From Legionella massiliensis (GTDB taxonomy: Bacteria; Pseudomonadota; Gammaproteobacteria; Legionellales; Legionellaceae), in assembly GCF_000756815.1 (NCBI RefSeq), contig NZ_CCVW01000001.1:1106001-1170000 (forward strand): a stretch of DNA of 64,000 bases, given 5' to 3'. This document shows positions 4,423 through 28,174 of this stretch, piece by piece. The notes beneath the pieces are model-generated. The model saw only the letters and a program-made list of their open reading frames with translations. It was not told where the DNA came from and did no database searches. Every line of letters begins with the position of its first letter. The first letter of the stretch is position 1. The translations under genes were made by a program, and so were the position numbers.

Positions 4423-5913
4423 TTAAAATAATCCAAGTAATTCATAATGATGGCGTTTGCGTGCTAACTTCTCATCTCCATTTGCAATTTTTAAGGCAGC
4501 TCTCAAATAACCTGAAGCTGAGTTGTAATCTCGACTTTGTTCACAAACTAAGATGAGTCGAGAAAGTACATCAATCAACCTAGGGTTCCGTTTATTAATT
4601 GTTTCAAGTTTTTTTCTAGCATCATCATATCTGGCCTCCATAGCATCTATTGATGCTTCGCAAATCGCTAAATCTAAGGATTCATCATTACAATGTTTTG
4701 AAATATTTAGTATGTGGGTAGCACTATCAAGACGCCTTAATTTCATGAATACCTTTATCGTTAACTCACGAATATGTGTAGTCGATTGATCTTTAGATTC
4801 AAGCTCATCTTGATCTAATTTATCTACTACTTTCGCAAAATCAAACCATCGTTCAGCACGATATAATGCATTTAGCTGTTGCAATAGGGCCAGTTTTTCC
4901 TTGGTCTTGAAATATTGATTTCCTGCTATATTGGCTGCTTTAAGGTAATCTGCTTTCTCAAGCGATGCTACAACGTCGGTAGTCCAATCTCGAAGTGACA
5001 TGTTATTTGCGGGAGCAAGATGCATAATACTATTTTGTTTATTTTGAATTTCAACAGCGCTAGTAAATGCAATTTTTAGTTCTTCTATTGATTGAAAACG
5101 ATTTGTTGGCTCCTTTTCCAGGCAACGTAAGATTACCTGATCCAGTTCTTTACTGATTGAATGATTAATTTCACTAGGTTTTCTAAAAGGATCATATCTT
5201 AATACTTGTGCTTGTGTATCATGTGGTAATTCACCCGTCATTAATTGATATAATAAAACACCCAAGCTATAAATGTCGCCGGCTAATAATTCCGCAAAAT
5301 TACCTTTTCGACTAACGCAATCACAAAATTCCGGTGCAGAATACAGAACCGTACCGCCATTTTCTCTTGTGCGAACATATATTTCTTCTGGTAGTGCCGA
5401 GCTTCCAAAATCTGTTAATTTAACTAACTGGCCTTGGCCAATTAGAATATTATGAGGTTTTATATCTCCATGAGATATCGGGCGATCTAACTGCGAAAGA
5501 AATTCAACTGCATCTAATACCTGGGTGTATATATTAAAAAGTCTTTGATAGGTATTTCCAAAATGATGACTGCGTTGTTCAAGCTTTTGGGCCAGGCTCT
5601 CGCTGGGGAAATATTCCATTTCTATAGCATACCATTCTTTTTCTGGGGGAACTCGTCCCATATCATATATCTGGATAACATTAGGATGAGGTTTAATGCC
5701 AATTAGTTCTTTCCCTTCAGCTAGGGACCGATCAGACAAGGTGATATTTTTTGGTATTTTCACCGCCACAATTAAATTATCTGAAAGGCGTTCTGCTCGC
5801 CAAACCCAACCATGACTACCGTCACCTAAACAATCAAGTAATAAATATTTATTACCTAATTGTTTATCTCTTCCTGGTAAAAAATGAGCTGAATTTATTT
5901 TCACTTTATGCAC
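4423..5913 (-). CDS. Ser/Thr protein kinase with helical-repeat tail, defence operon
   Basis: A eukaryotic-type kinase domain spans about residues 15 to 285. The glycine loop is LGDGSHGWVW (29-38), the ATP lysine is K52 (VAVKIPK) and the catalytic loop is SHGDIKPHNIL with D150 and N155. DFG is at 168-170 and the SAPEF segment around 193-195. HRD is replaced by HGD, seen in some bacterial kinases. Residues 310 to 496 are all-helical with TPR-like features and may sense partners. It is the last gene of the 11-gene leftward operon, overlapping the preceding gene by 13 bp. Kinases of this kind occur in PGL/BREX and MADS defence systems, so a regulatory or toxic role on infection is likely. No membrane segment is present. 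Confidence 0.85.
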   Translation of the reverse strand: MHKVKINSAHFLPGRDKQLGNKYLLLDCLGDGSHGWVWRAERLSDNLIVAVKIPKNITLSDRSLAEGKELIGIKPHPNVIQIYDMGRVPPEKEWYAIEMEYFPSESLAQKLEQRSHHFGNTYQRLFNIYTQVLDAVEFLSQLDRPISHGDIKPHNILIGQGQLVKLTDFGSSALPEEIYVRTRENGGTVLYSAPEFCDCVSRKGNFAELLAGDIYSLGVLLYQLMTGELPHDTQAQVLRYDPFRKPSEINHSISKELDQVILRCLEKEPTNRFQSIEELKIAFTSAVEIQNKQNSIMHLAPANNMSLRDWTTDVVASLEKADYLKAANIAGNQYFKTKEKLALLQQLNALYRAERWFDFAKVVDKLDQDELESKDQSTTHIRELTIKVFMKLRRLDSATHILNISKHCNDESLDLAICEASIDAMEARYDDARKKLETINKRNPRLIDVLSRLILVCEQSRDYNSASGYLRAALKIANGDEKLARKRHHYELLGLF

Positions 5914-6476
5914 CTATATGTCATATTCTTAAGTCGTAACAGACCATCAGAACCTTTTATAAACATCATACGATTAATTAATAGTTGGCAATTGTTAGGC
6001 ACCTGTATAAATGCGCCTTTATTATTTAGAGCTCCATTTTGAAAAACTTGCTCCAACTCATTAAAGTCGGGTAAGGAAACCAAATCTTGACTCCAAAATG
6101 AGAGCACTAGTAATTCAGTGCTGCTTTGCCACCGAGCTGCCGCATCTATAAGATTAATTAATTTTTCTAGTAATTTACGCTTTCCTTTATAGGTACCGTC
6201 AAATCGTTCATATTCGATCAAGACTTTTGGTGTAACAGTTTTTTTGTCAAACCAGACGGAGTCAGAACGAATATCATTTCCAGCTGCACTTGGAGCAGGG
6301 CCTTCAACTACTGCCATATAATCAAATTCGTGTCCAAGGGTATTCCATAAGCTACAACCAATGCTGTGCACGTAGACATGCTCATCTTTAACTCCATGAT
6401 GTAGCAGCACTGGAAAAGCGTTTTCAATAAAATCACTGTCAAGCTTATTTTGAATTTTCTGAATTAAGTTACTCAC
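5901..6476 (-). CDS. Small possible nuclease (PD-(D/E)XK-like), defence operon
   Basis: The family of this 191-residue protein is not recognised. The middle part (RSDSVWFDKKTVTPKVLIEY, then ERFDGTYKGKRKLLEKLINL) contains an Asp followed about 15 residues later by a strand with E-Y-E and then a basic helix. That is the layout of the PD-(D/E)XK nuclease core, although the usual Lys is not in the standard place. The N-terminus is helical and the C-terminus hydrophobic. It overlaps the HerA-like ATPase gene by 8 bp and the kinase gene by 13 bp. A DNA-cleaving role is a guess from the core layout. Confidence 0.5.
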   Translation of the reverse strand: MSNLIQKIQNKLDSDFIENAFPVLLHHGVKDEHVYVHSIGCSLWNTLGHEFDYMAVVEGPAPSAAGNDIRSDSVWFDKKTVTPKVLIEYERFDGTYKGKRKLLEKLINLIDAAARWQSSTELLVLSFWSQDLVSLPDFNELEQVFQNGALNNKGAFIQVPNNCQLLINRMMFIKGSDGLLRLKNMTYRCIK

Positions 6477-8154
6477 TGAAACTATCCCATATTTTCAATA
6501 CCTCTGGTGATTCGCCCCCATGAACCAGTGCTTTTGTTCCAATCTTGACTAATAACGGTGCAGGAATAGAACGACCACAAATTAATGCTTCACCAGTTGA
6601 TAAGCTTGGTAATTCGTCTAAATCAGCTTTACTCACCATATCAGATGCTTTTGCAATAAATCGCTGATCATCAGGATTTTTTAATCTCATGGTAATCAAC
6701 GTATTGCATTGGGAGGTTACATCAGAATCAAGCTTAGATGGTCTTTGGCTTACAATGCCAAATCCAACACCAAATTTACGGCCCTCACCAGCAATTTTCT
6801 TAATGATTCTGTGGCTAACGGCATTGCCACCGGCTGGTGCAAAATTATGTCCCTCTTCATATACAAGAAAACAGGGGCGTAAAGGATCTGTTTTGCTAGA
6901 AGCTGCTCTGAGTATTTCACTACTTAGCAAACCACAAACTACCTGTTTTGCTGTATCACTTAGGCCTTGAAGATCTATGACTACAAGACGACCTTTACGA
7001 TTTGAAGGACGACCTACCATTTGGTAAATATCAGTTGGTTCTTTCATAGTTGCAGAGTAAAAGCTCTGAGCTTCATTTAAAATTCGGCTTAATTTCATTG
7101 ATGCTACAGCAGCGCTGCGTCCATTTAGTGCTTTAGCTTCGGCCTCTGACAGGTCATCCCATGCTCTGATTTCCTCAATGCCATCGCCAAGAAAAAATCT
7201 GAGTCTATTAATATCTCTTGGTTCTGTCTTATCATGTGTTCTCCAATAACGAATCGCTACATCAAGAACACGTTGTTGAGGTTCTGTCAGCCCAGGTAAA
7301 ATTTCTGAAATATCATCCATTTCGAATCGATCAAATTGCAGGGCTAAAGGATTGTTTTTATTTGCATACTTATACTTGAAGGATTCATGCTGAGGTGTAT
7401 AAATCTGTATTCCCGCTCCTGAACTATGAAGACGCTCCATCATTGCTTTAATTTCAGGTAACGTTTTTTGGTCGCGAACATCTTCAACATCATTAAAGTT
7501 ATTATTAAAATGCAATTTACCTTTTGCAAGAGCTTTACCGTATTCCCCATGAGGGTCAAATACCACGACTGTACCATTATTAATAGCGACCAAGCGTTCA
7601 ATAATTCTACCAACGGTGTAAGACTTACCTGAACCCGTCATAGCCAAAATTGCCATATGTTCTGTTACCAGTTTGTTTACATCTAAAAAAACTGGAACGG
7701 TATTTTCACCACGCTCATAACCTATTAAATTTCCTATATGAAGGCTTGTGTGCTCATTAAACTCATAGAAATCAGATAGAAATTGAAAATCAACGGTTTC
7801 AACTTTAGCACCAGGATCTAATGGCCTTCTTGGAATTTTAATCTGTCTAGTTGCAGGATCACGGTAGCCAACTAATTCAAGATTTGCATATAAATGCTCC
7901 CCGGTTACATTGGCACCAGGCAATAATTCCAGTTCGGTCACTGCATCTCCAAATCCAGAATTATAGAGCATATTGGACCGATGAATTTTCATGATGCGAC
8001 CTAAAACCGGGACTGCTTGTTCATCTTGTCTCTCTTTATGCATGATACGAACAAACTCGCCCCGTCGGACTGAGAATGAATCCTCTATAATCATGGTAAG
8101 TTTTGAGGCTTCGCCTGTATTACCTACCAATTTACCTAATACTTTATGTTTCAT
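6469..8154 (-). CDS. HerA-type hexameric DNA-translocating ATPase
   Basis: The 561-residue protein starts with a HAS-barrel-like segment (residues 1-95), followed by the HerA/FtsK-like ATPase. Walker A is AMTGSGKSYTVGR, with K177. Further on are VVIDLQGLSD and the Walker B-like LVYEEGHNFAP, where HerA has the double Glu and the conserved His/Asn. GRKFGVGFGIVSQRPSKL is typical of the HerA arginine-sensor region. HerA proteins form hexameric rings that pump DNA and work with NurA-type nucleases. The adjacent upstream gene here is NurA-like. In this operon it is probably the motor that delivers DNA to a nuclease. Confidence 0.88.
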   Translation of the reverse strand: MKHKVLGKLVGNTGEASKLTMIIEDSFSVRRGEFVRIMHKERQDEQAVPVLGRIMKIHRSNMLYNSGFGDAVTELELLPGANVTGEHLYANLELVGYRDPATRQIKIPRRPLDPGAKVETVDFQFLSDFYEFNEHTSLHIGNLIGYERGENTVPVFLDVNKLVTEHMAILAMTGSGKSYTVGRIIERLVAINNGTVVVFDPHGEYGKALAKGKLHFNNNFNDVEDVRDQKTLPEIKAMMERLHSSGAGIQIYTPQHESFKYKYANKNNPLALQFDRFEMDDISEILPGLTEPQQRVLDVAIRYWRTHDKTEPRDINRLRFFLGDGIEEIRAWDDLSEAEAKALNGRSAAVASMKLSRILNEAQSFYSATMKEPTDIYQMVGRPSNRKGRLVVIDLQGLSDTAKQVVCGLLSSEILRAASSKTDPLRPCFLVYEEGHNFAPAGGNAVSHRIIKKIAGEGRKFGVGFGIVSQRPSKLDSDVTSQCNTLITMRLKNPDDQRFIAKASDMVSKADLDELPSLSTGEALICGRSIPAPLLVKIGTKALVHGGESPEVLKIWDSFSE

Positions 8155-8157
8155 ATT

Positions 8158-9294
8158 TTATTCATCCTCAAATAATCCAGATAGCCATATATCTTCTACT
8201 TCATTTTTCTTCATTTCTGAAACCAGTGTATTGCGATAATAATCGGTAAATTGTTCTAGCATTTTTAATTGCTGCAAACCAAGTATTTGGGGTAGGGGTA
8301 CGCTCTTATGATGGCTTTGCATATCAAGAATCATTAGCTTCCACGCAACATTATCTAATGCTACAGAATCCCAATCGGTTTCTTCACCTGCCATTTGTAT
8401 CATCTGAATTTCACCCTGGTTCCCCCCTTTAAAATGAAACCCAATCAACCCCTCAGAAACGATTTCGACTGGTTCAATGCGTGTATGTTTTTCAGTTATT
8501 CGAAATGCAATGGTACGGTTAAATGATCCTAATATCCCTTTAATGAATCGATAGTCCCCAATTCCTTTAAGTTTAGTCTCTATCCCAATTAAAGAAGTTG
8601 CCTTTTCTGCTTTAAAACCATCAGACAATAACAAATGCTTACGACCTTCTTCCGTCCTTAAATCCTGATACGCTATATTGACAATGGCGCTAAATCGTTG
8701 TGCCATGATACTCACAAGAACAGGACCATTCTTATTCCATGGAAAAAGGCTATTTCTATATTGCTCCCAAAACTTTCTTATAACAGAAAGAGTTTTTGCA
8801 TATTCAGCAACATGTTGAAGATGATGGCTAAGTGGTGCCATCTCCCTTTCTAAAAACAAAGGGGTGTCTATGATTATTAGTTGTGGCACCTCTTCTTTCT
8901 TGAGTGTTCGTTCAATCAATTCATAAGATTGCCTGATTGCAATTAATTCCAGTCTTTTGGTTTGTGCTTCAATGTCAATATCATCTAGCTCTGCCACTGA
9001 ATCACTTCCTTGAGTGCTCACTTTATTGTCTGCAATCAGCATGTCTGTTCTGACTGCTGCTGAAGAATAAATAAATCCACCTAATGCTTTTTTGATGCAA
9101 TACTTTGTTGCAATTCCAGTTAACGACAAATTCATTTGCGCGGGTCTATTTACTGGTTTTATCAACCCGGCTTCACGAAATAAGGGCGCTACAGACTCTA
9201 TATCTCTAATTTGTTTTAAAAGACGGCCAGCACTGCCTGGTAATCTAATTTGACTCTCTACAGCTAATGTTTGCGCCAGACTAGCTTCTCTCAT
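8158..9294 (-). CDS. NurA-like nuclease candidate, partner of the HerA ATPase
   Basis: The 378-residue protein is encoded directly upstream of the HerA-like gene with a 3-bp gap. NurA-like features are a strand-rich N-terminal half with a late acidic position (RTDMLIADNKVS), the hydrophobic strand before an Asp (PQLIIIDTPLFLEREM) and a helical QSYELIERTL segment between them. The C-terminal region contains IQMIQMAGEETDWDSVALDN. HerA and NurA are usually neighbours, which strengthens the call, but the catalytic Asp pair is not as clear as in archaeal NurA. If right, it would provide 5'-3' exonuclease or endonuclease activity driven by the HerA motor. Confidence 0.5.
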   Translation of the reverse strand: MREASLAQTLAVESQIRLPGSAGRLLKQIRDIESVAPLFREAGLIKPVNRPAQMNLSLTGIATKYCIKKALGGFIYSSAAVRTDMLIADNKVSTQGSDSVAELDDIDIEAQTKRLELIAIRQSYELIERTLKKEEVPQLIIIDTPLFLEREMAPLSHHLQHVAEYAKTLSVIRKFWEQYRNSLFPWNKNGPVLVSIMAQRFSAIVNIAYQDLRTEEGRKHLLLSDGFKAEKATSLIGIETKLKGIGDYRFIKGILGSFNRTIAFRITEKHTRIEPVEIVSEGLIGFHFKGGNQGEIQMIQMAGEETDWDSVALDNVAWKLMILDMQSHHKSVPLPQILGLQQLKMLEQFTDYYRNTLVSEMKKNEVEDIWLSGLFEDE

Positions 9295-10135
9295 TTGACC
9301 ATTCCTCTTTTAGTCGTTCAGTATAAATCCAGTATGGGGATTGCTGTAATGCGTTGATTCCTTTATCAGATAAACCATTGCTGCTTAAAAAGCCTGCTTG
9401 TTCTAATCGTTCAAAGCCAGTGTCAATCTCCTGGTCACTAAAGGAAAAGATACCCATTCGATTTTGTTTTAATAAATGAATAATTTCTTCTCTATTTTGT
9501 AGGTTAAGGGCATCTATACAAACCATTAAACCAAAATCAGTCTTTTCAAGAGATGGTTGATGTTCATCTGATATTTTATGAGGTTGAGTTCCTGGTTTGC
9601 CAGCTAACCTAAGCAATTGTAAAAGCCAGTCAGTCACTTCATCAGTGTGATTCAATAATGAAATAGACCACAAAGGCAAACAAGTTGCGGAAAATACACC
9701 ACTACCTGAATGTGTTTTAAAATAGCGAGTATTAATGGTCAGATTTTTCCATTGATATCCTAGTTGTCGATCAGTCTCACCATCCATCCCGTCAATTCGT
9801 GTGGCAACCTCAGGAACGATTTGGGAATAAAGAGTTTTGAAACAATTGATATCAGCAAGATCTACGACTGTTTCTAGAAAAGAAATTCTCCAATCTAAGG
9901 ATGAGTATATCTTGCCTGGATTAAAAGGAGGAATTAGTAGCAAACAACACGCGGGTTGGGAGGCCCAACGCCACCAATTTAATTTTTGATTGTCTTCTAA
10001 TTCTTGAAATTGATTACCATGAATTAATACCATTCCACTATGAGGAAGCTCTTCAAATATTAGGGCGTTTAGTTGAGATTGAAAAAATCGGCCATGTCGA
10101 TGTTGGCTTAATTCAGGCTCTAAATAGAGGTTCAT
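9281..10135 (-). CDS. Uncharacterised defence-operon protein with winged-helix-like C-terminus
   Basis: The family is not recognised. The 284 residues start with LYLEPELSQHRHGRFF and a Trp-rich segment (KLNWWRWASQPACCLLLIPP). The C-terminal ~70 residues (REEIIHLLKQNRMGIFSFSD, then QEIDTGFERLEQAGFLSSNG) look like a winged helix in which the last strand pair follows a short helix. This could bind DNA or a protein partner. It overlaps the NurA-like gene by 14 bp and the large ATPase gene by 4 bp, so it is translated as part of the operon. No catalytic motif is visible. Confidence 0.6.
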   Translation of the reverse strand: MNLYLEPELSQHRHGRFFQSQLNALIFEELPHSGMVLIHGNQFQELEDNQKLNWWRWASQPACCLLLIPPFNPGKIYSSLDWRISFLETVVDLADINCFKTLYSQIVPEVATRIDGMDGETDRQLGYQWKNLTINTRYFKTHSGSGVFSATCLPLWSISLLNHTDEVTDWLLQLLRLAGKPGTQPHKISDEHQPSLEKTDFGLMVCIDALNLQNREEIIHLLKQNRMGIFSFSDQEIDTGFERLEQAGFLSSNGLSDKGINALQQSPYWIYTERLKEEWSNERS

Positions 10136-13100
10136 ACATTGCCTCCAAAAGTTAACTGTATTTTTAAAATACCTTCGTTTACGAGTAACTTTTGTTCATC
10201 ATCTGACAGTTGGGGACTCTGATTTTTTAATAAACCCTCGGCAATTTGACACCAGCGCTCTAATAAAACTGATGTACCCGAAAGTGCTTCTTGAGCTTGT
10301 GATTTCCATTGTTGCAAATAAATATCTAAGCCAATGTTTAAATCATGTAAGGACAAGTCTTTAATATCTTCCTCTGATATGGCTTTTATTTCCTCGAGTC
10401 CTTTCGCACGTAACAATGGATTAATCAGCGGACGAAGTTGGCTATTTGTCTGATTGAGTTTCTCTTGGCGATAACGATTAAGTGCGTTTTCACAAGACCT
10501 CAATTTTCCGCCCAAGCCACTCAATTGTCTTTTTATAGGACCTAGTAATTGTTCTGGTGCATTGGTGATGGCAGAAAATTGACCTCGATGTGTTTGCTCA
10601 ACAAACCGCTGACGAATTAAATCAATCTCATCTTCCATACCTTCAAAGCTTTCATGAATCAGAGCAAGTTGATTTTGTAATTCCAATAATATGAGAGGAT
10701 GCTCATTATCCGGATAATCAACTGGTAGTTGCTCATCTAGGCTGGCGATAGCCTTTCTAATCCGAGCATCTAAATCCAATACTGTATCATTAACATCTTT
10801 ATATTGTTCAAGAAAATGATGATAAGTTTTTAAAATGTATCTACTGATATCCTCAATTTTTTTAAACGTATTACTCGGCAAATCATAACCGACTTCTTCC
10901 GCTAACAGGGAAAGTCTTTCTGACGCTTTGTTTAATTGCAAAGATCTTAAATAATGCAGCAATGTTTCAGAACCTGCCTGAGCCTCCTTTTCTTGAGTGG
11001 CTGTGTTTCGACTCCCCTGAAGGGCGCCCTGAATAATATTACTGATTGTTTGTAGTGATAAGGTGAATAACCGGCGTGGAAATGGAAAGGCTGCCTTGAG
11101 GTCATTTTCAATATATTCTAATAAAGCGTCTACGCGTTCATTGATATTTTTAGCGCCAGTTGAAACAAATTCCGCAAATAATCTCGCACGTTCAATACGT
11201 TCATATAACGAAACTTCTTTGTCTTCTAAAGAAATATTACGTAGATTATCTAGTCTTACTCTAGGCAAGGGATTTGGATAAACTTTTTTCAAATCAGCGA
11301 TAATCGCTAATCGCCTCTTAATGATTAAAGGAAGTTGTTCAAGAGCATCTTCCAGGCTACCGATTAAATTTTCTTCTTGATTTTTTAATGCTGAAAAGCA
11401 CTCATCAGCGTCTTTTAAACAATCCAATGCTTCAGTAGTCTGTGTTCCCTGAGGAGACTTACCCCTGGGTGCAAATAAGTCACTAATTTTGGTAAAACCA
11501 TAAACCTGTTCTAATGTAGCTATTACTTGAGGATAATCATCAGGACCAGTGCCTTCAAGCCAGTTGTTGGCTTCTGTAAGTGCATTATCAAGCTCAGCTC
11601 GAGAAATGTTGATATAACATGATGACTTTGTAGAGTTATCTTCTAATTTTAAAAGATGTAGCTCGCGGCACCACCACATCCAGTCATCAAAGACATTCTT
11701 ATCATTCAAACCATTACTGGCGCCAGACCACAAATAACCCCAGTACCATTCTTTTCTGGCCTTTTCGATTGTCCATTTTGTGAGTTTTGCTGGGTTAGCA
11801 ATTTTTGCCAAAAATGCAGGAAAGTGAGCCTGCGCATTTGCTGGCTGTTCAAGATCCGTAAATAACCCAGCCTGTTCATGACGGCTATAGCCTTGGGCTT
11901 GAGCTTTACTTCCCACTAACAAACGCCCAAAGAGTGATACCAATGCCTCAACGTCAATGTGATGCTCTGGTGTGAGCGCGTGCAAACCACCTAGTTTTGG
12001 CTGTTGGATTGCAAATAATTTCCACGTATTTAATAAAAGTTGACGTTCATCCAGATTTAATTTTCCAGATGGACGTAAAGGCCAGGCTATCAACCCTCGG
12101 TAGGATAGTGACCGTCGCCATTGGTGAATACGTTGATAAGCAAAATCACGTATGCTATTCAATCGTCCTTTGAATTTGGTTGTAAAAATTTCTTCCTTTA
12201 AATTAAATTGAAGGCAATGTTTTTGAGGTAACCCGATACGCTCTAAAACATCAATTTCACTAGTGTTCAAATGATAGATCAAAATATCATCATGCAGTTG
12301 TGTATCGCTTTCATTTCCATTTGCTATATACCAGTCATTTACCGCAACCGAGCCTGTAAACGCCATGACAGGTATACGACCTTCACCATCTTCACGAACT
12401 CTGGCTATTAAAGCATGTAAGCTTTGTAATTCTTGTATATTGTTAACCCAGGCAAACCAGGCTAACCCTTTCGGGTGCAGCTTCAGCCCATCACAAAATT
12501 GTAGTCCTCCTAATAATCCTCTTCCTTGGCCTCGTGGTGTTATCTGAATAGCAAGACCGTCTCGTGTTGGATATGCTGGTTCATCATATTGCCATTGTTT
12601 ATCCAGTAAGCGAAACAATCCTGTTAATCTTGCCTGTGCTCGGGATAAAGGGTTCTTTGACCATTCTATCTCCGCATTTTTCATTGCTGCTTCATGATAG
12701 TCGGCCATCATAGCATCGCGAAAGATCATTGAATTATGATGTTGGCTGCGATAGCGCAAATCCAGGCGTAATAACATTGCAACACTAGGGCCAATATGTG
12801 TACTTTCAGATTCTGAAAGTTGCTGTTCTTGGCCAATAAATTTTTCCCATAGTGCATCAGCTGCAAATTCAGCCGCAGAATGACCATAAAGTAAAGCGAC
12901 CAATTGTTTGAAATCGCTTCGTATTAACGGAATTAATAACCCATCAGGACCAGCATTTTTTTCCGCAACAGCAAAGGTTTTAAGATTTTGCAACAAGGTC
13001 TTTAGGTTCAGTCCTTGGTCAACACTGGGATAAAACCATTCATCTTTATCCCGTTGAAACTTGGCATCGCTCAAAGCCAATCGACAATCGCTCTCGGACC

Positions 13101-19267: not shown

Positions 19268-20284
19268 TTAATTATGCTCTAATAATTTCAGGATAAAATC
19301 CACAGCTTTTAAATTGTAAATACTTGGTATATTTTTATGCACAATTTGACTTTTAATATATTCATCTTCTTGTCTTTTATTTCTGAAGTTATATGCAGAA
19401 TAATCTGAATTTGATTTAATATTATTTTCTTTGATTATTTCCCAAATTTGATTTTGAGCAACATCTGGACGACGTTTTTTAATGTGTGATACAAGATCTG
19501 TTGCTGATAGGGGATATGTCTTTACCAAATTTTCTTTTACTCTTTTGGTAACTTCAATTTGTTCAACAGGATATACATCACCAATAAGTTTTAAAGTTTT
19601 TTCACCGTTTTTTTCAACAAACTCGCCTTCTTTAATGAAAGAAATTTTAGACGCTAATTGGTCATCCATGACTAAAACTTGCGCATCATTTTTTTCAATT
19701 AACCCTCTTTCAGTATCCAGTATTGCTGCATTTTCAGGTCCAGCTTTACCAATTTTACTCACTAAATCCATCCATGCTAGATTATTTGCTTCTATTCTTT
19801 TCCTTATTATGCTTTCAAGCTCCGCATATTGTATTTTCTGTGTTCTTCCACCATAACGATAATAAATTTCACCGTTTTTAATTGTATGGTCTTTCCCTTC
19901 ATCTTTTTTAGCAATTATAGGTTTATTGGTGCATTCTTCTATTTTAAAAACGCCAAATTGCTTTCCATAAAGTTCTATAATAGTTTGTTCCCAGCGTATA
20001 TCCGCAGAAAATATTTCCAGTAAATAACCGGTTATCTTTTCAGGATCTATGTTATTAAATTGTGATATTGAATTAATATTCATACCATTAGGTATTCGTG
20101 GTGAATCTTTAACACCAAAAATCAAATAACCACCGCGGTTATTAGCAAAAGCAGCAAAATCTCTAAAATAATCAGCTAATCCTGCTAAATTAAATTGCTC
20201 TTTGAACTCCAGTTCCTGACCTTCTCTATGGTAGAGAAAATCTCCTTTCATCTTTAGTAACTCTTTAATATGAGATTCATCCAT
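19268..20284 (-). CDS. AlbA_2 (Schlafen-like AAA_4) domain protein
   Basis: The N-terminal ~145 residues have the AlbA_2 domain pattern: GQELEFKEQFNLAGLADYFR, then FAAFANNRGGYLIFGVKDSP (the strand-helix with the GG pair), then INSISQFNNIDPEKITGYLL. The C-terminal half is helical and basic, with DLVSHIKKRRPDVAQNQIWE. AlbA_2 proteins occur in transcription regulators and in defence proteins related to the Schlafen fold, where they are thought to bind nucleic acids. In this operon it lies between the methylase and the small protein with an 11-bp gap and a 2-bp gap. Nuclease activity is possible but unproven. Confidence 0.78.
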   Translation of the reverse strand: MDESHIKELLKMKGDFLYHREGQELEFKEQFNLAGLADYFRDFAAFANNRGGYLIFGVKDSPRIPNGMNINSISQFNNIDPEKITGYLLEIFSADIRWEQTIIELYGKQFGVFKIEECTNKPIIAKKDEGKDHTIKNGEIYYRYGGRTQKIQYAELESIIRKRIEANNLAWMDLVSKIGKAGPENAAILDTERGLIEKNDAQVLVMDDQLASKISFIKEGEFVEKNGEKTLKLIGDVYPVEQIEVTKRVKENLVKTYPLSATDLVSHIKKRRPDVAQNQIWEIIKENNIKSNSDYSAYNFRNKRQEDEYIKSQIVHKNIPSIYNLKAVDFILKLLEHN

Positions 20285-20286
20285 TT

Positions 20287-20703
20287 TTAATTCTTCTTAT
20301 CAAATTTCACCAAAGGTCCAATCATCGAAAGATAAGGATGATCCTCTATTGTACTTTTCATCATTGTTTCAGTAACTATTAGTTCTTTGGGTAATTTATT
20401 TTTTATAAATGTCAATGGTAAAGGTCGTTGTTCTATTTTTAGTATTTTGATAATTTCTTCACTCAAATTTTCTTTAAAGTTCTTGTTTTGCTGACGATTA
20501 ATATAGGTTGTAATACCTTCTTTACTATCATCTTTAAAAATATCAGGTTGGCAGGTCAGCCATAAACTTAACTGTACTTTACTCCAGGCAAGCGTTTGCC
20601 AAAATTCCGGATATGAAAACCATAATTCATCCAGTGTTTGTGGTTGCTGGCGGAGGTTCTCTTTGATCCGCTTAAGTTCATTCAGATCAATGGGTTGGTT
20701 CAT
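20287..20703 (-). CDS. Small uncharacterised defence-operon protein (138 aa)
   Basis: The family is not recognised. The sequence is mostly helical, with a Trp-rich segment (LDELWFSYPEFWQTLAWSKV) and a C-terminal part (LPLTFIKNKLPKELIVTETM, then MKSTIEDHPYLSMIGPLVKF) that looks like a small winged helix. It is coupled to the second HsdS-like gene by a 17-bp overlap and precedes the AlbA_2 gene by 2 bp. As an early gene of the operon with a winged-helix look, it is one candidate for binding the two operator copies upstream. That is speculation. Confidence 0.6.
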   Translation of the reverse strand: MNQPIDLNELKRIKENLRQQPQTLDELWFSYPEFWQTLAWSKVQLSLWLTCQPDIFKDDSKEGITTYINRQQNKNFKENLSEEIIKILKIEQRPLPLTFIKNKLPKELIVTETMMKSTIEDHPYLSMIGPLVKFDKKN

Positions 20704-22150
20704 TCGATGTCCTTGTTATATTCTGCTCAGGGTGGATAGTGCGATAAATGCTATACATTTGTTCAAGCAATAGTGATATTTCTTGCTCAAGCATTTCTTT
20801 TTCTTGTTGTAACTCTAATAATTGTTGGTGCCATGAGTAAGCTAAAGACTGCTCAATCTCTGGTATAACGATCTGTTCAAGCATTTTATGCTGAATAAAT
20901 CGTTGGGTAGTTCCATGAGCCAAAGCTCGCATTTGTTCTATAATTAATTCTGTTTCCATCAGCAATGCATAAGCTCCAGGAGCATGATGAAATCGCAAGA
21001 TTGCTAATTGCTCACTTACCAGAGGTAGAGTTTTAAGTTCTTGGGCTATGATTGCAACTCTAGGTTCTTGCACGAAAGTTGAAATCAAGACATCAAAGGG
21101 CATCAAAGTACTTTTAAGCGTTCGCCAGCCAAAGTCATTTTGCTCAGGTTTATTTACAGAAAGCTGGCTATTTATATCACTAATTTTAACAACATGGGTT
21201 TGCTGAAGAGGGTCAGAAACGTATTTTGATTTAGGATTAATGAGTGCTAATTTAGTGAGTTTCTGGCAGTTATAGTCAGATATTAATTCCTCAGATAAGC
21301 TGGCTTGCCAAGAGGCAGCATAGGTCAATTGATCATTTATATGCCTGGATTGTATATAAGTTGACTTAATATCTGGAGTGCCGATTTTTGTATAAAAGTT
21401 ACTACCTGATAGTTTTTGTGTTAGCCAATTATTAACGGACAATCGCAAGTTGTAGAGGCGTTCTTGTGAGTAGGCTAAGGCGCTGTATTTTTTATAATAG
21501 ATCTTAGCCAAGGCTACAAAGCCTGTTGGCATTTCGGCAATAGGCATTTGCTCAAGTTGTTTAACACCCGCACGGATCATCGTTGTGCCGGCACCTATTT
21601 GTTCAAGATAGCGACGGTACCATAATTGATTAAGACAAAAGCTCAACCAAATTGCCTGATTTAACTCAAGCCCTCTAATAATGGCGACATTTGCATCAAC
21701 AGGGTGCTGACGATGATAGTTTGAAACGATACTTGCACAAATACTTCCAATGCGGCGAATCAATACGTCACCTTTTTTTACACAGGAAGTCAGGTGATCA
21801 ATAGAGGGTGGTCGCATCAAATGAGATTCTACATTTAATTTCATTGGTTCTATATGACGCATTCTGTAAAAAAGACTTTGCTTAATTGTTTGTTCATATC
21901 GTTCAGCTAAATCAATTTCATTTGAAGTCGCTTTAGATGTTCTTTGAATATTTGTAATATGCTTTTTATACCAGTCAGACTTCATGTTTTCACTGAACCG
22001 CCATCCATCAAGAACTGTCGCATTTATTTCCTTTAATGTCGTCCAGGAATTTGTAAAGTTCGTTACTTCATCTCTCTTGCAAAGATAATTCTCTGGAAGC
22101 CAGCTATCAAACTTATCAATATTTTCTTTTTTGATGTAAATGCTATCCAC
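20687..22150 (-). CDS. HsdS-like DNA specificity protein (second), first gene of operon
   Basis: This 487-residue protein is similar in architecture to type I specificity subunits. The first half contains SCVKKGDVLIRRIGSICASI, the strand pattern of a target recognition domain, and NVAIIRGLELNQAIWLSFCL with YLEQIGAGTTMIRAGVKQLE, the typical spacer-region motif. The second half has DINSQLSVNKPEQNDFGW, LMPFDVLISTFVQEPRVAII and LVSEQLAILRFHHAPGAYAL. It ends with a long helix (SWHQQLLELQQEKEMLEQEI). The first half has I-G-A-G-T in place of the common SGGT. It starts the leftward operon, 206 bp from the divergent nuclease gene. Confidence 0.78.
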   Translation of the reverse strand: MDSIYIKKENIDKFDSWLPENYLCKRDEVTNFTNSWTTLKEINATVLDGWRFSENMKSDWYKKHITNIQRTSKATSNEIDLAERYEQTIKQSLFYRMRHIEPMKLNVESHLMRPPSIDHLTSCVKKGDVLIRRIGSICASIVSNYHRQHPVDANVAIIRGLELNQAIWLSFCLNQLWYRRYLEQIGAGTTMIRAGVKQLEQMPIAEMPTGFVALAKIYYKKYSALAYSQERLYNLRLSVNNWLTQKLSGSNFYTKIGTPDIKSTYIQSRHINDQLTYAASWQASLSEELISDYNCQKLTKLALINPKSKYVSDPLQQTHVVKISDINSQLSVNKPEQNDFGWRTLKSTLMPFDVLISTFVQEPRVAIIAQELKTLPLVSEQLAILRFHHAPGAYALLMETELIIEQMRALAHGTTQRFIQHKMLEQIVIPEIEQSLAYSWHQQLLELQQEKEMLEQEISLLLEQMYSIYRTIHPEQNITRTSNEPTH

Positions 22151-22335: not shown

Positions 22336-22356
22336 AAAACAAGAAAGGATGTGTCT

Positions 22357-25047
22357 ATGATAAAAATTATTGCAGGATTGGGTTATGGGAGCAGATTACC
22401 CAATCATCTCCCTGAATTATTGAACACTAAGATATGTGGTGAGTTAAGCCTAATTGACGAACTTGAGTTTCGCGTCGGGATTCCAAAACAAAATGAAGAT
22501 AGGGCATCCAGGATTATTGCTTATTTAAATGCGTTAAAGAAAGCAAATAAACCTTCGTGCTTTTATCATGCTTCTCTTGACACTGACGCTTTATCAACTG
22601 CTGAAACATTACTTCAATGGCGGGACTGGGCATTGGCCTATGGTTGGAATCCATCTGATCAAGGAAATAATCATGGCCGTTTAGTTGATTTGGCTGAAGT
22701 TGAACATCATTTTTTTTGCGAAAGTTTAAGTCTTCCTGGACGTATTTTTCGACTTATCCCATTAGTTGGTATTTTAAAGGGAACTATTGAAGGAGTTATT
22801 CTACATACTGAACATTCTCATTGGCCTCCTGTCTATCAGCAACTTTTTAATCAACTTCAAAGTTCTGGAATTGATATTATTGAAGACGTACCTAAAATGC
22901 TTTCACCTTTAGCGTTCGAGGGATGTGATCTATGGAAAATACAGAAAGCAATATTGAATAAAAAAGTTGAGCCTCTCAGACTTTCCAATGATGGCAGCTT
23001 GCGATTATATAACTGTTCAAGTAACCAGGTTGTTGCTGATTTCATAGCTCATTTTAATCCTGATAGTAGTTTGATAATTACCCAAAGTCAGGATTATGGG
23101 ATCGAAACTGCACTAAATAAGTTAAATCAAGTTTCACTTGGGCTGGGCAGTTCTTCGGTATCACGTATTCCAAATCATTTGTTGCAATTAAGTTTGCAGT
23201 GCGCCTGGCTTACACCTTCACCAGAGATAGTACTTCAATACTTAACTTTACCCACCGGTAAATTTAAGACGTTACGAAGAAAATTAGCACGTCAGTTTAA
23301 AGATCTTCCAGGATATAACCACGATGAATGGCAATACATCATCGATGAATATGTTGCTTCTGAAATTAAAAAGCAGCCTGCACTTAATGAATCCGTATTA
23401 CGACAATCAATACACGAATGGCTTCCCATTAGTTGCTGCCAAAATGATGAAAATATGCCGGTCAAACATGCTATTGAAATAGCTAAGAGAATTTCTGGTT
23501 ATTGGAAAACCTTATGTTCTGTTGGTGATGATGTAACCAAGGATATTTACTTGGCTTCATATAGGGCTGCAGATGCAACGGTCGAGGCTTTATCAAATTG
23601 GCCTGATTCTGAAATTAATAAGGTCCAATTAAACCGATTACTTACGATAATTAGAAAACTGAGACCCAGTACATTTTGTCAGCCAAGAGAAGTGAGCAGA
23701 TTTGATGTAGTCAAAAATCCTGAAAGTATTAACTTAACCCCCCGAAATATTGAACATATAATATGGTTAGACCCTAATCTTCAAGAGGAAGCAGGCGCTC
23801 CGCCATTTTCAAAAGATGAGCTATTATCAATTCCTTGGGCGCCAACGCATGAACAGCAAGCATTAATTAAGGAGTGGGCATTACAAAGAGCATGTTCTGT
23901 ATTTTTAAAAGCTAGAAAATCAGTGTATTTAATTAATTTAAATCAGCATACGGATCTGTTCAAACTATTTATAAACCAATTGGTATGCAATAGAAGGTGG
24001 TCTGATCTTGAGTCGTCATTGTTATTAACCACCACAAGAGAAGTTTCTTTGTCTCCAATAAAAGAACTGTCACTTCCTCATCCTCAGCGCTGGTGTACAC
24101 TTGGTGCTCCAATCCAATCAAATAGAGCGAAAGAATCTTATAGTAGTTTGTCGTCATTGGTTAATAAGCCTCATGAGTATGTTTTTAAATATTGCGCAAA
24201 AATATCTGAAGGTACGATCGAGGCCATTGCAGTTGATCATCGTCTAAAAGGTAATTTGGCACATAGAATTATTGAAAAATGGTTTACCGCTAATCCATGG
24301 ACGGGAAAAGAAGTGACGCAAGAATACATTTACGAATGGTTGAATGTCCAACTTCCCATATTTATTCGTCAATTTGCTCTTCCTCTGGCACAGCCAGGAA
24401 AGCATGTAGAGCGACTTGAATTTCATGAGGTCATGTTTAATGCAATAAGTGGCTTATGTAGTCTATTTCATCAGGCTAATGTTAAGGGAGTTGTAACAGA
24501 GAGGCATATGGAAGTACCTTTCAGCAGCGGTAACCTGGAAGGTAATATGGACATAATCTGTGAGTTTGGCGAAGAAAAATTTGCCATTATTGACATGAAG
24601 TGGGGTGGCTATGATCAATACAAACAGGAGTTGAAATCGAATACGGCTCTTCAATTAGCAACCTACGCTTATATCGCCCAAAAAGACCAGAAAAAAGAAT
24701 TAATTGACGCAGGCTATTTTATCTTGAGTAAAGCCGAGTTGCTCTGTAATTCCAATACGATATTCCCCACAGCAACAGTCATTTATCCCGAACAACCTGG
24801 TTCTTTAAATAATTCCTGGGCGCAATTTGAGCGCACCATACAATGGAGGCGTGCACAGTTAAAGGAAGGATTAATCGAACTAACCTATGGAGTGGCTGCA
24901 TCTGATGAATATTCAATACCACCTGATGGTTGTCTTTCTTTAGTTGATTCTGAAGAAAAGAATCTAAAGGGTCAAACAAGTTCTTATAAAAAAAATTACA
25001 AAAAAATTGATGTTTGGAGAAATCTGACAGGCAATATCAAGGAATAA
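22357..25047 (+). CDS. AddB-like nuclease, PD-(D/E)XK, defence-associated
   Basis: The 896-residue protein starts at ATG 22357, because AAAGGA (22344-22349) has a seven-base spacing to it, while an upstream GTG at 22351 is too close. The first ~600 residues resemble the inactive helicase-like fold of AddB/RecC-type proteins, without Walker motifs. The C-terminal nuclease domain contains HRLKGNLAHRIIEKWF (about residues 628-643, with the motif I His), EGNMDIICEF (D732), AIIDMKWGG (D746 and K748) and the QLATYAYIAQ helix. It is followed after 4 bp by the AddA-like gene. It probably forms a two-subunit helicase-nuclease with it, degrading foreign DNA. Confidence 0.75.
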   Translation: MIKIIAGLGYGSRLPNHLPELLNTKICGELSLIDELEFRVGIPKQNEDRASRIIAYLNALKKANKPSCFYHASLDTDALSTAETLLQWRDWALAYGWNPSDQGNNHGRLVDLAEVEHHFFCESLSLPGRIFRLIPLVGILKGTIEGVILHTEHSHWPPVYQQLFNQLQSSGIDIIEDVPKMLSPLAFEGCDLWKIQKAILNKKVEPLRLSNDGSLRLYNCSSNQVVADFIAHFNPDSSLIITQSQDYGIETALNKLNQVSLGLGSSSVSRIPNHLLQLSLQCAWLTPSPEIVLQYLTLPTGKFKTLRRKLARQFKDLPGYNHDEWQYIIDEYVASEIKKQPALNESVLRQSIHEWLPISCCQNDENMPVKHAIEIAKRISGYWKTLCSVGDDVTKDIYLASYRAADATVEALSNWPDSEINKVQLNRLLTIIRKLRPSTFCQPREVSRFDVVKNPESINLTPRNIEHIIWLDPNLQEEAGAPPFSKDELLSIPWAPTHEQQALIKEWALQRACSVFLKARKSVYLINLNQHTDLFKLFINQLVCNRRWSDLESSLLLTTTREVSLSPIKELSLPHPQRWCTLGAPIQSNRAKESYSSLSSLVNKPHEYVFKYCAKISEGTIEAIAVDHRLKGNLAHRIIEKWFTANPWTGKEVTQEYIYEWLNVQLPIFIRQFALPLAQPGKHVERLEFHEVMFNAISGLCSLFHQANVKGVVTERHMEVPFSSGNLEGNMDIICEFGEEKFAIIDMKWGGYDQYKQELKSNTALQLATYAYIAQKDQKKELIDAGYFILSKAELLCNSNTIFPTATVIYPEQPGSLNNSWAQFERTIQWRRAQLKEGLIELTYGVAASDEYSIPPDGCLSLVDSEEKNLKGQTSSYKKNYKKIDVWRNLTGNIKE

Positions 25048-25051
25048 ACCC

Positions 25052-28000
25052 ATGACTATCTATTATACACAAGCCAGCGCCGGTTCTGGAAAAACAACGA
25101 GCATTGAAAATGTAGTTACTGAAAAACTTATTAGTAAACAGCTTGAGCCACATCAAATCATGGCAGTTACATTTACAGAAGATGCAGCTGCTGAATTAAA
25201 AGAGAGAATCAGTCAGTCTCTTATAGCCAAAGGTAATCTATTTTTGGCAACGAGTATAATGAATTCACCGATTGGAACGGTTCATAGTGTTTTTGGTCAA
25301 CTGCTTGTGGATTTTGCCTTTGAGCTTGGTCTTTCACCTGAACAACAAGTAATTGACCCGTCTGATACAGAACAAATACTTGCTGAGGCCTTGGACAACA
25401 GTCTTGATGCTAAGAGGATTAAACAGCTTAATTATCTTGGAAATAGATTGAATGTAGACGACTGGAGAACAGTGATACATGATCTGATTCAATTATCTCG
25501 TTCTAATAATTTCTCAGATGAAGATATGGCTGTTTTTGCTGAGTTATCTATTAAGGATCTTATAAATTTATTACCTCCAATTGATGAAGGGATTAATGAA
25601 TCAGCATTTAGGTTGGTTATTCAACAGGCTATAGAGACTGGTCGTGTCGTAGACAATCCAACAAAAGGATTAAGCTCTACTATAGAAGATTGTGAAAAAA
25701 TTTTGAGAAAGGCCAGATTTGACTGGCAGGACTGGATTAAATTAAGCAAATTAAGCCCAACTAAAAAGGGGGAACTTGCATTCGCTCAAACCAAATTAGT
25801 CGGTGCTTCTGTCCTAAAATGTAAAGATTTTCAGGAGGAACTATTTGGTTTTATCCGTGAGATTTTTACTACAACTGCAATTGTTTTGAAAGATTTTCAA
25901 TTAACCAAAAAATCCCGAGGCTTCATTGATTTTGTAGATCAAGAACAATTGGCATTACATGCTTTAGATAATCCCATCATTCAGGAACGAATAAAAAATG
26001 AGATACGTTTTTTGATTATTGATGAATTCCAAGATACTAACCCAATCCAATTGGCATTGTTTTCTAAACTGTCATTACTGGTAGAAGATATTCTTATGGT
26101 TGGTGATGCTAAACAGGCTATTTATGGTTTTAGAGGTAGTGATCCTCGGTTGGCTTTAAATGTGTTGGATTTTGTACAAAAGGGAGGCGGTGAGATATCA
26201 ACATTACCTAATTCATATCGTTCAAGACCAGGACTTGTTGCACTTACCAATGAATTATTTACTCAACCTTTCAGTCATTTGTTAACTCCTGAGCAGGTTC
26301 AATTGGCATCAGTTCGAAAAGATAAATTAGAAACAGCTGAAGTGGAATGGTGGACCTTGGTAACTGAAGGTAGACCAAATAAAAACATTATGATAAATAC
26401 ACTTGCTCAAGGTATTAAGGATCACATCCATACCGGTGTTAAGATTATGGACAGAGAAACTAAAGAGCATCGATTTGCTACCTGGCGTGATTTAGCGGTT
26501 CTTTGTCGTGGTAATTCAGAAATTTCTGAGTTAGCGGGTTCTTTGGCAAAGATGGGGGTCCCTGTTTCGTTTAAGAGAAGTGGACTTCTTGAGACGCCTG
26601 AAGTTAGTTTGGCTCTAGCTTGTTTACGTCTTCTGATAGACCCCTCTGATTCTTTAGCCAGTGCTGAAATTGTATGTTTGGCAGCAAATACTGGTCCCGA
26701 AACTTGGCTGAGAGAGCGGTTAAATGGAATAGAAACCTCCAAATCGAATATTTGGGATGAAAATGCTCATCCTATTTTAGATAAGTTAGCCAAGGTAAGA
26801 AAACAAGTAAGTATGTTAAGTACTGGCGAAGCTTTAGATTTAGCAATGCTTACGGCAGATGTTTACTCAATTGTAGCTGCATGGGGGGAGAACACAAAAC
26901 TTGCAGAACATCGGTTCGCTAATCTTGCAGCACTCAGTGAGTTTGTCAATGAATATGAAAATCATTGTGAAACTCAATTTATGGCAGCCACCCCTTCTGG
27001 ATTTATTCTTTGGTTAAAAAACAAAGAGCAGAATAATTCAGATAATCAGGCAGCAAATCCTGGTGATGCCGTTACGTTAACAACTTATCATGGCTCAAAA
27101 GGATTAGAATGGCCCATAGTAGTTTGCTCTAGTTTAGATAGTTCATTGAAATTATCCCTTTATGGAATCAGGATCGTTCAAGATAATTTTGATTTTGATT
27201 GGAATAATCCATTAAAAGGTCGGGCTATTCGCTATATCCCTAATCCATTTCCAGACCAGAAAGCTAATGAGCCTCTTAATGATTTGTTGAAACAACTCAA
27301 TGATTGGACTGCAAATGAACGACAAGAAGTTAATGAGGCTATTCAGTTACTTTATGTTGGGATGACTCGAGCAAGAGACCAATTAATCCTCCCAACCTTG
27401 AATAAGAATGAGTATGTTGGTGAATGGTTAAAATTATTAAACAGTAACTTTTTACCTTTAAAAGGAGGGGATTTACAAATTGGTTCGAATACTTTGAAAG
27501 TAAAATCGAGAACAGTATTATATCAGGTTGAAAATCAAGTCTTACCTGCAGCCAAAAGATTGAAATATTGGTTTAATTCAGAGGCAGAGAAATCGTTGCA
27601 AGACAGGATGGTATATAATCAGCCCGCCTCTAACTGTTCTCCAATAGAAACGGCCCAAGGGAATATTATTCATAACTTTGATTCAAGGATAAAATTAAGC
27701 GGTCCTGTGGAAATGGAAGATCTTGGTGTAGCCTTACATCACTGTCTTGCAATATTGATTAATAATCCAGAAGCTGACCATAGCATCATTAATAGTATAA
27801 TTAATAATAAAGTTCCGGGCATAATTAATCCTGAGCACGTCATCGCTCGAGGCAAGGAGCTATTAAACTGGATTAATTCAACTTTTCCTGAATCTAAAAT
27901 GCATACAGAACTACCTTTTACTCAACATCTTGATAATGGCGGCATTAGGCAAGGTGAAATGGATCTGGTTTTGGAGACCTCGACGGGGTGGTATATAATT

Positions 28001-28174
28001 GACCATAAATCCAATCCACAACCATCAACAAATTGGGTTGATATTGCTCTTCAATATAGCGGGCAATTATCAGCATACAAACATACACTGGAAGCTCTCT
28101 CCAATAAAAAAGTGTTAGGTACGTTTATTCACTTTACTATTGGTGGGGGACTAGTTGAGGTAATAGTAGATTAA
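25052..28174 (+). CDS. AddA/RecB-like UvrD helicase-nuclease, defence-associated
   Basis: The 1040 residues form a superfamily 1A helicase with a C-terminal nuclease. Motif I is QASAGSGKTT, with K14, and motif Ia is AVTFTEDAAAELKERI. Motif II is LIIDEFQDTNP (324-329) and motif III is GDAKQAIYGFRGSDPR. Later motifs are TLPNSYRS, TLTTYHGSKGLEWPIVV and LLYVGMTRARDQ. The nuclease has GEMDLVL (D971) and YIIDHKS (D984 and K986), with the downstream QLSAYKHTLE helix. This is the AddA arrangement. The pair is separate from any core RecBCD. With the AddB-like protein it could replace the missing HsdR as the effector nuclease. Confidence 0.85.
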   Translation: MTIYYTQASAGSGKTTSIENVVTEKLISKQLEPHQIMAVTFTEDAAAELKERISQSLIAKGNLFLATSIMNSPIGTVHSVFGQLLVDFAFELGLSPEQQVIDPSDTEQILAEALDNSLDAKRIKQLNYLGNRLNVDDWRTVIHDLIQLSRSNNFSDEDMAVFAELSIKDLINLLPPIDEGINESAFRLVIQQAIETGRVVDNPTKGLSSTIEDCEKILRKARFDWQDWIKLSKLSPTKKGELAFAQTKLVGASVLKCKDFQEELFGFIREIFTTTAIVLKDFQLTKKSRGFIDFVDQEQLALHALDNPIIQERIKNEIRFLIIDEFQDTNPIQLALFSKLSLLVEDILMVGDAKQAIYGFRGSDPRLALNVLDFVQKGGGEISTLPNSYRSRPGLVALTNELFTQPFSHLLTPEQVQLASVRKDKLETAEVEWWTLVTEGRPNKNIMINTLAQGIKDHIHTGVKIMDRETKEHRFATWRDLAVLCRGNSEISELAGSLAKMGVPVSFKRSGLLETPEVSLALACLRLLIDPSDSLASAEIVCLAANTGPETWLRERLNGIETSKSNIWDENAHPILDKLAKVRKQVSMLSTGEALDLAMLTADVYSIVAAWGENTKLAEHRFANLAALSEFVNEYENHCETQFMAATPSGFILWLKNKEQNNSDNQAANPGDAVTLTTYHGSKGLEWPIVVCSSLDSSLKLSLYGIRIVQDNFDFDWNNPLKGRAIRYIPNPFPDQKANEPLNDLLKQLNDWTANERQEVNEAIQLLYVGMTRARDQLILPTLNKNEYVGEWLKLLNSNFLPLKGGDLQIGSNTLKVKSRTVLYQVENQVLPAAKRLKYWFNSEAEKSLQDRMVYNQPASNCSPIETAQGNIIHNFDSRIKLSGPVEMEDLGVALHHCLAILINNPEADHSIINSIINNKVPGIINPEHVIARGKELLNWINSTFPESKMHTELPFTQHLDNGGIRQGEMDLVLETSTGWYIIDHKSNPQPSTNWVDIALQYSGQLSAYKHTLEALSNKKVLGTFIHFTIGGGLVEVIVD

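What the first reader, a model, noticed from the sequence alone, without database searches (positions are those of the whole stretch)
4423..28174. Composite 13-gene defence island related to but larger than MADS
A kinase, a HerA ATPase with NurA-like partner, a possible small nuclease, a 1435-residue P-loop ATPase, three proteins of no known family, an HsdM methylase, two HsdS-like proteins, an AlbA_2 protein and a divergent AddB/AddA-like pair are all packed with overlaps or gaps of a few bases. The methylation-associated defence system (MADS) also combines kinase, ATPase, methylase and nuclease genes. Here there is an added helicase-nuclease pair with two nuclease domains and a HerA/NurA pair, so this may be a MADS variant or a new system. 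No PglZ, BrxL or DISARM proteins are present.
Basis: partly seen in the sequence, partly recalled or inferred. Interest (0 to 1): 0.85.

Follow-up and report, generated by a model that had tools for sequence, protein, structure and literature searches.

The report
Unnamed ten-gene methylation-guided HerA defence operon
This stretch of a mobile element carries a ten-gene operon, not named in the libraries searched and found in the same gene order in bacteria of at least seven phyla, that is predicted to mark the cell's own DNA through an exchangeable recognition subunit and likely uses a DNA motor with a nuclease to attack unmarked DNA; it is not the known system MADS.

Summary
The genes are real: 14 ORFs (not 13) at 4423-28174. 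They are a conserved core plus accessories. The core is ten genes: u138, HsdM, HsdS, u408, a 1435-residue ATPase, u284, a NurA-fold protein, HerA, u191 and a kinase. Of 49 related loci with enough flanking DNA, 44 have all ten; 51 of all 68 have them in one order, over seven phyla or more. A second S-like gene lies upstream in 31 of 54. AddB is in 3 of 52 testable relatives and AlbA_2 in 0 of 53; McrBC or a YhcG nuclease lies upstream elsewhere. It is not MADS: no MADS cut-off is met, and MAD3, MAD4 and MAD7 have no counterpart. The ATPase resembles ORC/Cdc6 proteins and BrxC in predicted fold, not in sequence. HsdS is only 32-41% identical in eight of nine otherwise similar operon pairs, the pattern of exchanged recognition domains. 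No HsdR or PglZ family match was found in the genome. The operon rides on a 55-kb element with conjugation genes in tRNA-Met. Best reading: a methylation-guided restriction system of a new type. Defence itself is untested.

The parts
4423..5913 (-). core: Ser/Thr protein kinase, 496 aa (VAVK49, HGDIK148, DFG168)
   Evidence: Pkinase 1.8e-34; MAD6 121 of 460 bits; motifs; in 48 of 49 testable loci
5901..6476 (-). core: u191, predicted small PD-(D/E)XK-like nuclease with an E-x-E variant
   Evidence: E58, D72, E88, E90, K105 identical in 35 of 35 aligned; no Pfam, NCBIfam or PADLOC match; 48 of 49 loci
6469..8154 (-). core: HerA-type ATPase
   Evidence: DUF87 3.9e-45; NCBIfam helicase_HerA 205 bits, below its cut-off of 970; the most conserved gene, median identity 75% in 40 loci; 48 of 49 loci
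8158..9294 (-). core: NurA-fold protein that seems to lack the first catalytic Asp, predicted to be impaired as a nuclease
9281..10135 (-). core: u284, unknown
   Evidence: 47 of 49 loci; PDB profile search gave no hit below E 0.06; zinc-transport regulators and a ribosomal protein tie for best
10132..14439 (-). core: 1435-aa P-loop ATPase, predicted ORC/Cdc6-like AAA+ fold resembling BrxC in its N-terminal part
14432..15658 (-). core: u408, no known family
   Evidence: 47 of 49 loci; no PDB profile hit
15655..17220 (-). core: HsdS with two predicted exchangeable target-recognition domains
   Evidence: PADLOC Specificity_I 468 bits; 32% identical to L003 while its neighbours u408 and HsdM are 89 and 93%; two variable blocks around a conserved spacer, then a conserved tail
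17217..19256 (-). core: HsdM N6-adenine methylase (DPTCGS356, NPPF449)
   Evidence: N6_Mtase 2.8e-21; PADLOC MTase_I 1178 bits; only gene in the genome matching PF02384 at E 1e-3; motifs
19268..20284 (-). accessory: SLFN AlbA_2 protein between u138 and HsdM
   Evidence: Pfam 3.8e-18; absent in 53 of 53 relatives that hold both neighbours (largest gap there 358 bases), also in the 97%-identical L003
20287..20703 (-). core: u138, small fast-evolving protein
   Evidence: 44 of 49 loci; median identity 25%
20687..22150 (-). frequent partner: second S-like protein (S2)
   Evidence: Specificity_I 9e-8, MAD5 1.1e-7; S2 in 31 of 54 testable loci; not exchanged when HsdS is (95% vs 32%)
22351..25047 (+). 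accessory: AddB-like PD-(D/E)XK nuclease
   Evidence: PDDEXK_1 1.2e-12; in 3 of 52 relatives with 9.7 kb of left flank
25052..28174 (+). accessory: AddA-like UvrD helicase with PD-(D/E)XK domain
   Evidence: UvrD 2.4e-46, PDDEXK_1 5.7e-5; lies at the edge of the flanks held, partly seen beside AddB in L003 and L005
32010..33137 (+). tyrosine integrase of the carrier element
   Evidence: Phage_integrase 2.4e-15
33227..33274 (.). att repeat: 48-bp exact copy of the tRNA-Met 3' half; other copy at G000:C1:1083901-1083948, outside the window
257..691 (-). integrating-conjugative-element protein (PFL_4695 family / DUF2859) of the carrier
   Evidence: TIGR03765 87 bits, cut-off 59.75; PF11072

Best explanation
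The window holds a ten-gene operon, conserved in gene order across at least seven phyla, that likely works as a methylation-guided restriction system in which HsdM-HsdS would mark self DNA and a HerA-centred motor-nuclease machine would destroy unmarked DNA. Shown by sequence: the core and its order; strong divergence of HsdS, in its two recognition-domain blocks, between otherwise similar operons; methylase and kinase motifs; no HsdR or PglZ family match in the genome; position on an element with conjugation genes and att repeats. Inferred: (1) HsdM with HsdS methylates adenine at a two-part motif. (2) Since the ATPase and HerA stay 93-100% identical when HsdS is exchanged, the attack machine likely reads the motif through HsdS itself, or does not read sequence; a role of the faster-evolving u138 or u408 is not excluded. 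(3) The giant ORC/Cdc6-like ATPase loads or gates the machine on unmodified DNA, by analogy with BrxC. (4) HerA pumps the DNA; the NurA-fold partner probably caps the ring without cutting, because its first catalytic Asp seems to be missing, and u191 is the likely nuclease. (5) The kinase controls activation. AddB/AddA and AlbA_2 here, or McrBC elsewhere, would be back-up nucleases beside the core.
Confidence: 0.62

Rival explanations
1. It is a BREX-type system: the 1435-aa ATPase acts as BrxC, HsdM-HsdS replace PglX, and phage replication is blocked without the HerA-side nuclease being the main effector.
For: BrxC is the top Foldseek hit and gives the longest alignment in the VIA list, 346 residues. 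A published composite joins BrxC, BrxB, BrxA and PglZ homologues with HerA (PMC12839542, section 36).
Against: No PglZ match in operon or genome. No significant sequence-profile match of the ATPase to 14 BrxC proteins, or of u191, u284, u408, u138 and the ~350-aa family to the two genes upstream of BrxC taken as BrxA/BrxB by position. HerA, the NurA-fold gene and u191 are in 48-49 of 49 testable loci.
Confidence: 0.18
2. It is a MADS variant.
For: MAD2 and MAD5 are the best NCBIfam models for HsdM and HsdS; the kinase matches the MAD6 kinase domain (hhalign 99.9%); PADLOC mad8 matches HerA (1.7e-25).
Against: MAD2, MAD5 and MAD6 cut-offs missed; no MAD3 (RecF/ABC-like), MAD4 or MAD7 counterpart. 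In four Pseudomonas stretches of 19.9 kb with MAD2-like genes, profiles of the ATPase, NurA-fold, u191, u284, u408 and u138 found nothing at E 1; the stretch of the full MADS locus ends after MAD7. HerA models beat mad8 by 107 bits.
Confidence: 0.05
3. The operon protects or regulates the conjugative element itself (DNA repair, exclusion of rival plasmids, epigenetic control) rather than defending against phages.
For: It is cargo of an element with conjugation genes; HerA-NurA is a repair machine in archaea (PMC9960219, abstract start seen in a search listing).
Against: Exchange of recognition domains and neighbouring restriction genes point to conflict. Phage and plasmid defence are not separated by any result here.
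Confidence: 0.1

Closest known systems
MADS (methylation-associated defence system)
   Same: HsdM-HsdS pair whose closest NCBIfam models are MAD2 and MAD5; Ser/Thr kinase; HerA-type ATPase (PADLOC mad8 match)
   Different: no MAD3, MAD4 or MAD7 counterpart; kinase 496 aa instead of a ~1400-aa protein also matching PglW; adds the 1435-aa ATPase, NurA-fold protein, u191, u284, u408, u138
BREX and BREX-related systems (BR, BRC; PMC12839542: abstract, passages and section 36 seen)
   Same: large ORC/Cdc6-like AAA+ ATPase resembling BrxC in predicted fold; methylase; BRC also has HerA; back-up nucleases
   Different: no PglZ or BrxL match, no BrxA/BrxB by sequence; HsdM-HsdS instead of PglX; NurA-fold protein and u191; not the BRC set with TGT/GNAT
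HerA/FtsK capture systems (PMC10853773: abstract, passages and section 22 seen)
   Same: HerA-type ATPase combined with an ORC/Cdc6-like ATPase, nuclease and winged-helix proteins
   Different: no HsdM-HsdS self-mark with a separate kinase in the passages seen
TdpAB (structure 8wfd)
   Different: Tdp uses phosphorothioate modification (recalled); here adenine methylation is predicted
Type I restriction-modification
   Same: HsdM and HsdS with two variable blocks, as in TRD exchange
   Different: no HSDR_N match in the genome

Membership tests
MADS | MAD2 methylase above NF047738 cut-off | tested here: not met
   109 of 720 bits; a true MADS gene scores 1013
MADS | MAD5 HsdS above NF047740 cut-off | tested here: not met
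   94 and 31 of 400 bits
MADS | MAD6 kinase above NF047741 cut-off | tested here: not met
   121 of 460 bits
MADS | MAD3, MAD4, MAD7 present | tested here: not met
   no NCBIfam match in any of the 14 ORFs; no hhalign match of nine families
MADS | MAD1 present | not tested
   no MAD1 match was listed, but no MAD1 sequence was obtained for comparison
MADS | MAD8 ATPase | tested here: inconclusive
   PADLOC mad8 88 bits but the best HerA model 195 bits
BREX | PglZ | tested here: not met
   none listed for the operon; 0 of 1 own genome, rings in 2 of 14 controls
BREX | BrxC ATPase | tested here: inconclusive
   fold resembles BrxC; no NCBIfam match; best profile stretches 45 and 106 columns at E 0.074
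BREX | BrxA and BrxB | tested here: inconclusive
   no sequence-profile match; folds of u284, u408, u138 not predicted
BRC (BREX-related capture) | PglZ with HerA and BrxC-type ATPase | tested here: not met
   no PglZ
Type I R-M | HsdM and HsdS | tested here: met
   1178 and 468 bits to PADLOC models
Type I R-M | HsdR | tested here: not met
   HSDR_N 0 of 1 own genome, rings in 9 of 14 controls
HerA-NurA pair | HerA ATPase | tested here: met
   DUF87 155 bits over cut-off 23.2; the NCBIfam HerA equivalog cut-offs are not met
HerA-NurA pair | NurA fold | tested here: met
HerA-NurA pair | NurA sequence family and catalytic Asp of motif 1 | tested here: not met
   Pfam NurA in 1 of 34 at E 0.038; profile comparison fails; column 59 S/A/G/V/T in 34 of 34, column placed by topology
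DISARM | DrmA, DrmB, DrmC | tested here: not met
   no such family among the PADLOC matches listed for the 14 ORFs; for kinase, HsdS and AddA only the best 25 rows were shown

The most novel reading that the evidence does not exclude
A new class of methylation-guided DNA interception: an exchangeable HsdS plug sets the self-mark for a machine built of a giant ORC/Cdc6-like loader, a HerA ring, a catalytically dead NurA cap and a separate small PD-(D/E)XK cutter under kinase control, carried here by a conjugative element and present in at least seven bacterial phyla.
Probability: 0.45. Interest if true: 0.87.

Novelty: new variant of a known kind. Interest (0 to 1): 0.74.

Why it matters
If true, it adds a large methylation-linked defence family beside BREX, DISARM and MADS, shows that a type I M-S pair can guide a restriction machine other than HsdR, and offers naturally exchanged HsdS subunits for testing how such machines read self. 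It also gives six protein families without a name a shared context.

Tried and rejected
MADS membership: rejected by cut-offs and by comparison with a real MADS locus. That locus was read over MAD2-MAD7; MAD1 and MAD8 were not compared, and the extra stretch fetched for MAD8 (L093) was not analysed. A first search of 369 genomes of the window's class found no MADS over the cut-off. AddB/AddA and AlbA_2 as parts of the core: rejected. The three 'AddA' loci are two cut-off pieces (L003, L005) and one weak helicase match (L025, 25 bits). BrxC, BrxA/BrxB and NurA by sequence: not supported (62, 78, 116). PDB profile searches gave nothing usable; the haemagglutinin HA2 hits of the ATPase profile (best E 3.5e-4) are read as coiled-coil similarity. 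Plasmids: no match for the ATPase; for HsdM 52 records, none over 80% of its length, all under 60% identity. Viral contigs: three loci, not pursued; L071 and L072 have the same gene coordinates as L050 and L054. Promoter scan of the divergent gap: no more sites than shuffles (4 against 3.3). In the divergent loci L067-L069 the genes in the places of u408, u138 and u284 match these by hhalign at E 1.8e-6 to 1.4e-4 but with low probability (79, 26, 28%), so they were counted as missing.

Dropped before counts: 19 of 68 loci for short flanks (49 'testable'); 14 of 68 from the S2 count; 16 of 68 from the AddB count; 15 of 68 from the AlbA_2 count; the identity correlation used the first 40 eligible loci. 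Alignments A2-A8 used chosen members, not all. S2 and HsdS profiles overlap, so the S487 row is not a count of S2. Phylum labels were set by hand from record titles.

Literature: the MADS paper is not held. No listed title or abstract start describes this operon; nor do the parts seen of PMC12839542 (abstract, passages, section 36), PMC10853773 (abstract, passages, section 22) and PMC7251087 (passages; a conjugative element with BREX and a HerA gene). Supplements and subscription journals were not searched.
Full report
WHAT IS THERE. Searches confirm 14 ORFs between 4423 and 28174 (the finding says 13 but lists 14). Twelve lie head to tail on the minus strand, with overlaps of 4-17 bases or gaps of 2-11. 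The AddB/AddA-like pair starts 200 bases away on the other strand. Pfam, PADLOC and NCBIfam support kinase, HerA, HsdS, HsdM, AlbA_2, AddB-like and AddA-like genes. Six proteins (u191, the 378-aa protein, u284, the 1435-aa ATPase, u408, u138) have no Pfam or NCBIfam family above its cut-off.

A CONSERVED TEN-GENE CORE. The ATPase has 448 homologues at E 1e-3 or better among 7994 scored candidates; those named among the best 120 are hypothetical or uncharacterized proteins. An alignment of it with 19 of them found 68 loci in the collection of 84,980 species genomes, a lower bound because two exact peptide patterns were used. Gene families built from the window proteins were mapped onto the loci. 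Of the 68, 49 have at least 6.5 kb left and 10.5 kb right of the ATPase start; 44 of these 49 hold all ten core genes. The order u138, HsdM, HsdS, u408, ATPase, u284, NurA-fold, HerA, u191, kinase holds in 42 by gene starts; the other two (L013, L029) differ by over-long ORF starts. By gene ends, 51 of all 68 loci hold the ten in order on one strand: Pseudomonadota 33, Bacillota 6, Planctomycetota 3, Acidobacteriota 3, Cyanobacteriota 3, Verrucomicrobiota 1 (ATPase split in two ORFs), Desulfobacterota/delta 1, and one MAG titled Fibrobacter (labels from record titles). Identities of eight core genes follow those of the ATPase with r 0.91-0.98 in 40 loci; this also reflects common descent.

ACCESSORIES. 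AddB is in 3 (L003, L004, L005) of 52 relatives with 9.7 kb of left flank; AddA lies at the edge of the flanks held and cannot be counted. AlbA_2 is in none of 53 relatives that hold both neighbours. L003 (Legionella bononiensis) is 97% identical in the ATPase but has no gene between u138 and HsdM. Upstream of u138, L017 has an AAA_5-McrBC pair with relatives in L024, L026 and L032; L015 has a YhcG-type nuclease gene (relatives in L036 and L066 lie inside the operon); L037 has a WYL protein (relatives in L008, L055) (one member of each family scanned). A second S-like gene (S2) lies upstream in 31 of 54 testable loci.

EXCHANGE OF RECOGNITION DOMAINS. In nine close pairs (some loci used more than once) HerA is 97-100% and the ATPase 93-98% identical, while HsdS is 32-41% in eight pairs and 71% in the ninth (L021/L022). 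HsdM is 92-97% in eight and 76% in one; u408 is 87-93% and u138 69-94%. In the six pairs examined, conserved blocks remain near residue 190-220 and at the C-terminus, with divergent blocks before and between. In the two pairs that carry S2 in both members it is 94-95% identical, so it is not exchanged. Only this one gene of the genome matches N6_Mtase, and HSDR_N has no match. Inference: HsdM-HsdS sets the self-mark, and the rest of the operon stands in for HsdR.

NOT MADS. Two of 348 Pseudomonas-genus genomes have MAD2 over its cut-off. One locus was read: MAD2, MAD3 (RecF/ABC-like), MAD4, MAD5, MAD6 in a 1402-aa ORF, and MAD7. The window's proteins miss the MAD2, MAD5 and MAD6 cut-offs and have no MAD3, MAD4 or MAD7 match; methylase, HsdS, a kinase domain and a HerA-type ATPase are shared in kind. 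The M-S pair may share ancestry with MAD2-MAD5.

CARRIER. The integrase at 32010-33137 adjoins tRNA-Met at 33228-33304. A 48-bp exact repeat of the tRNA 3' half lies at 33227-33274 and 55,326 bases to the left. TraD, TraC and five integrating-element proteins, each above its cut-off, lie inside (3 of 10 proteins scanned had no family). Beyond the tRNA come Pfam matches for a sigma-70 factor, DnaG, YqeY and TsaD. The ATPase is in 1 of 22 same-genus genomes held, the window's own. The window's genus is not named by any tool; the nearest named homologues are Legionella.

MECHANISM AND NOVELTY. The explanation above is the simplest that gives most core genes a part (u408, u284 and u138 stay open), but only conservation, motifs, predicted folds and HsdS exchange are shown. 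In the libraries and papers searched the operon has no name. The papers nearest to it describe HerA/FtsK capture systems (PMC10853773) and BREX-related capture (PMC12839542). It is best filed as a new variant of the multi-gene methylation-linked defence kind.

Noticed in passing
window 33227-33274 and G000:C1:1083901-1083948: 48-bp exact direct repeat marks a 55.3-kb integrated element in tRNA-Met with conjugation genes; the defence operon is its cargo.
   Followed up: yes
window 19268-20284: AlbA_2 (Schlafen-like) gene sits between u138 and HsdM here; 53 relatives holding both neighbours, among them the near-identical L003, lack it.
   Followed up: partly
L017:960-4362, relatives in L024, L026, L032: An AAA_5-McrBC pair occupies the region upstream of u138, where the window has S2 and AddB/AddA: perhaps an exchangeable nuclease cassette beside the core.
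   Followed up: partly
L059:8925-9980 and 14 other loci: A ~350-aa family lies between u408 and the ATPase in 15 loci, not in the window; the one member scanned has no Pfam match.
   Followed up: partly
L067-L069: Divergent arrangement with HsdS beside HerA in L068 and L069, and distant versions of u408, u284 and u138; possibly a sister form.
   Followed up: partly
window 38989-64000: ORFs beyond tsaD were listed but not annotated.
   Followed up: no
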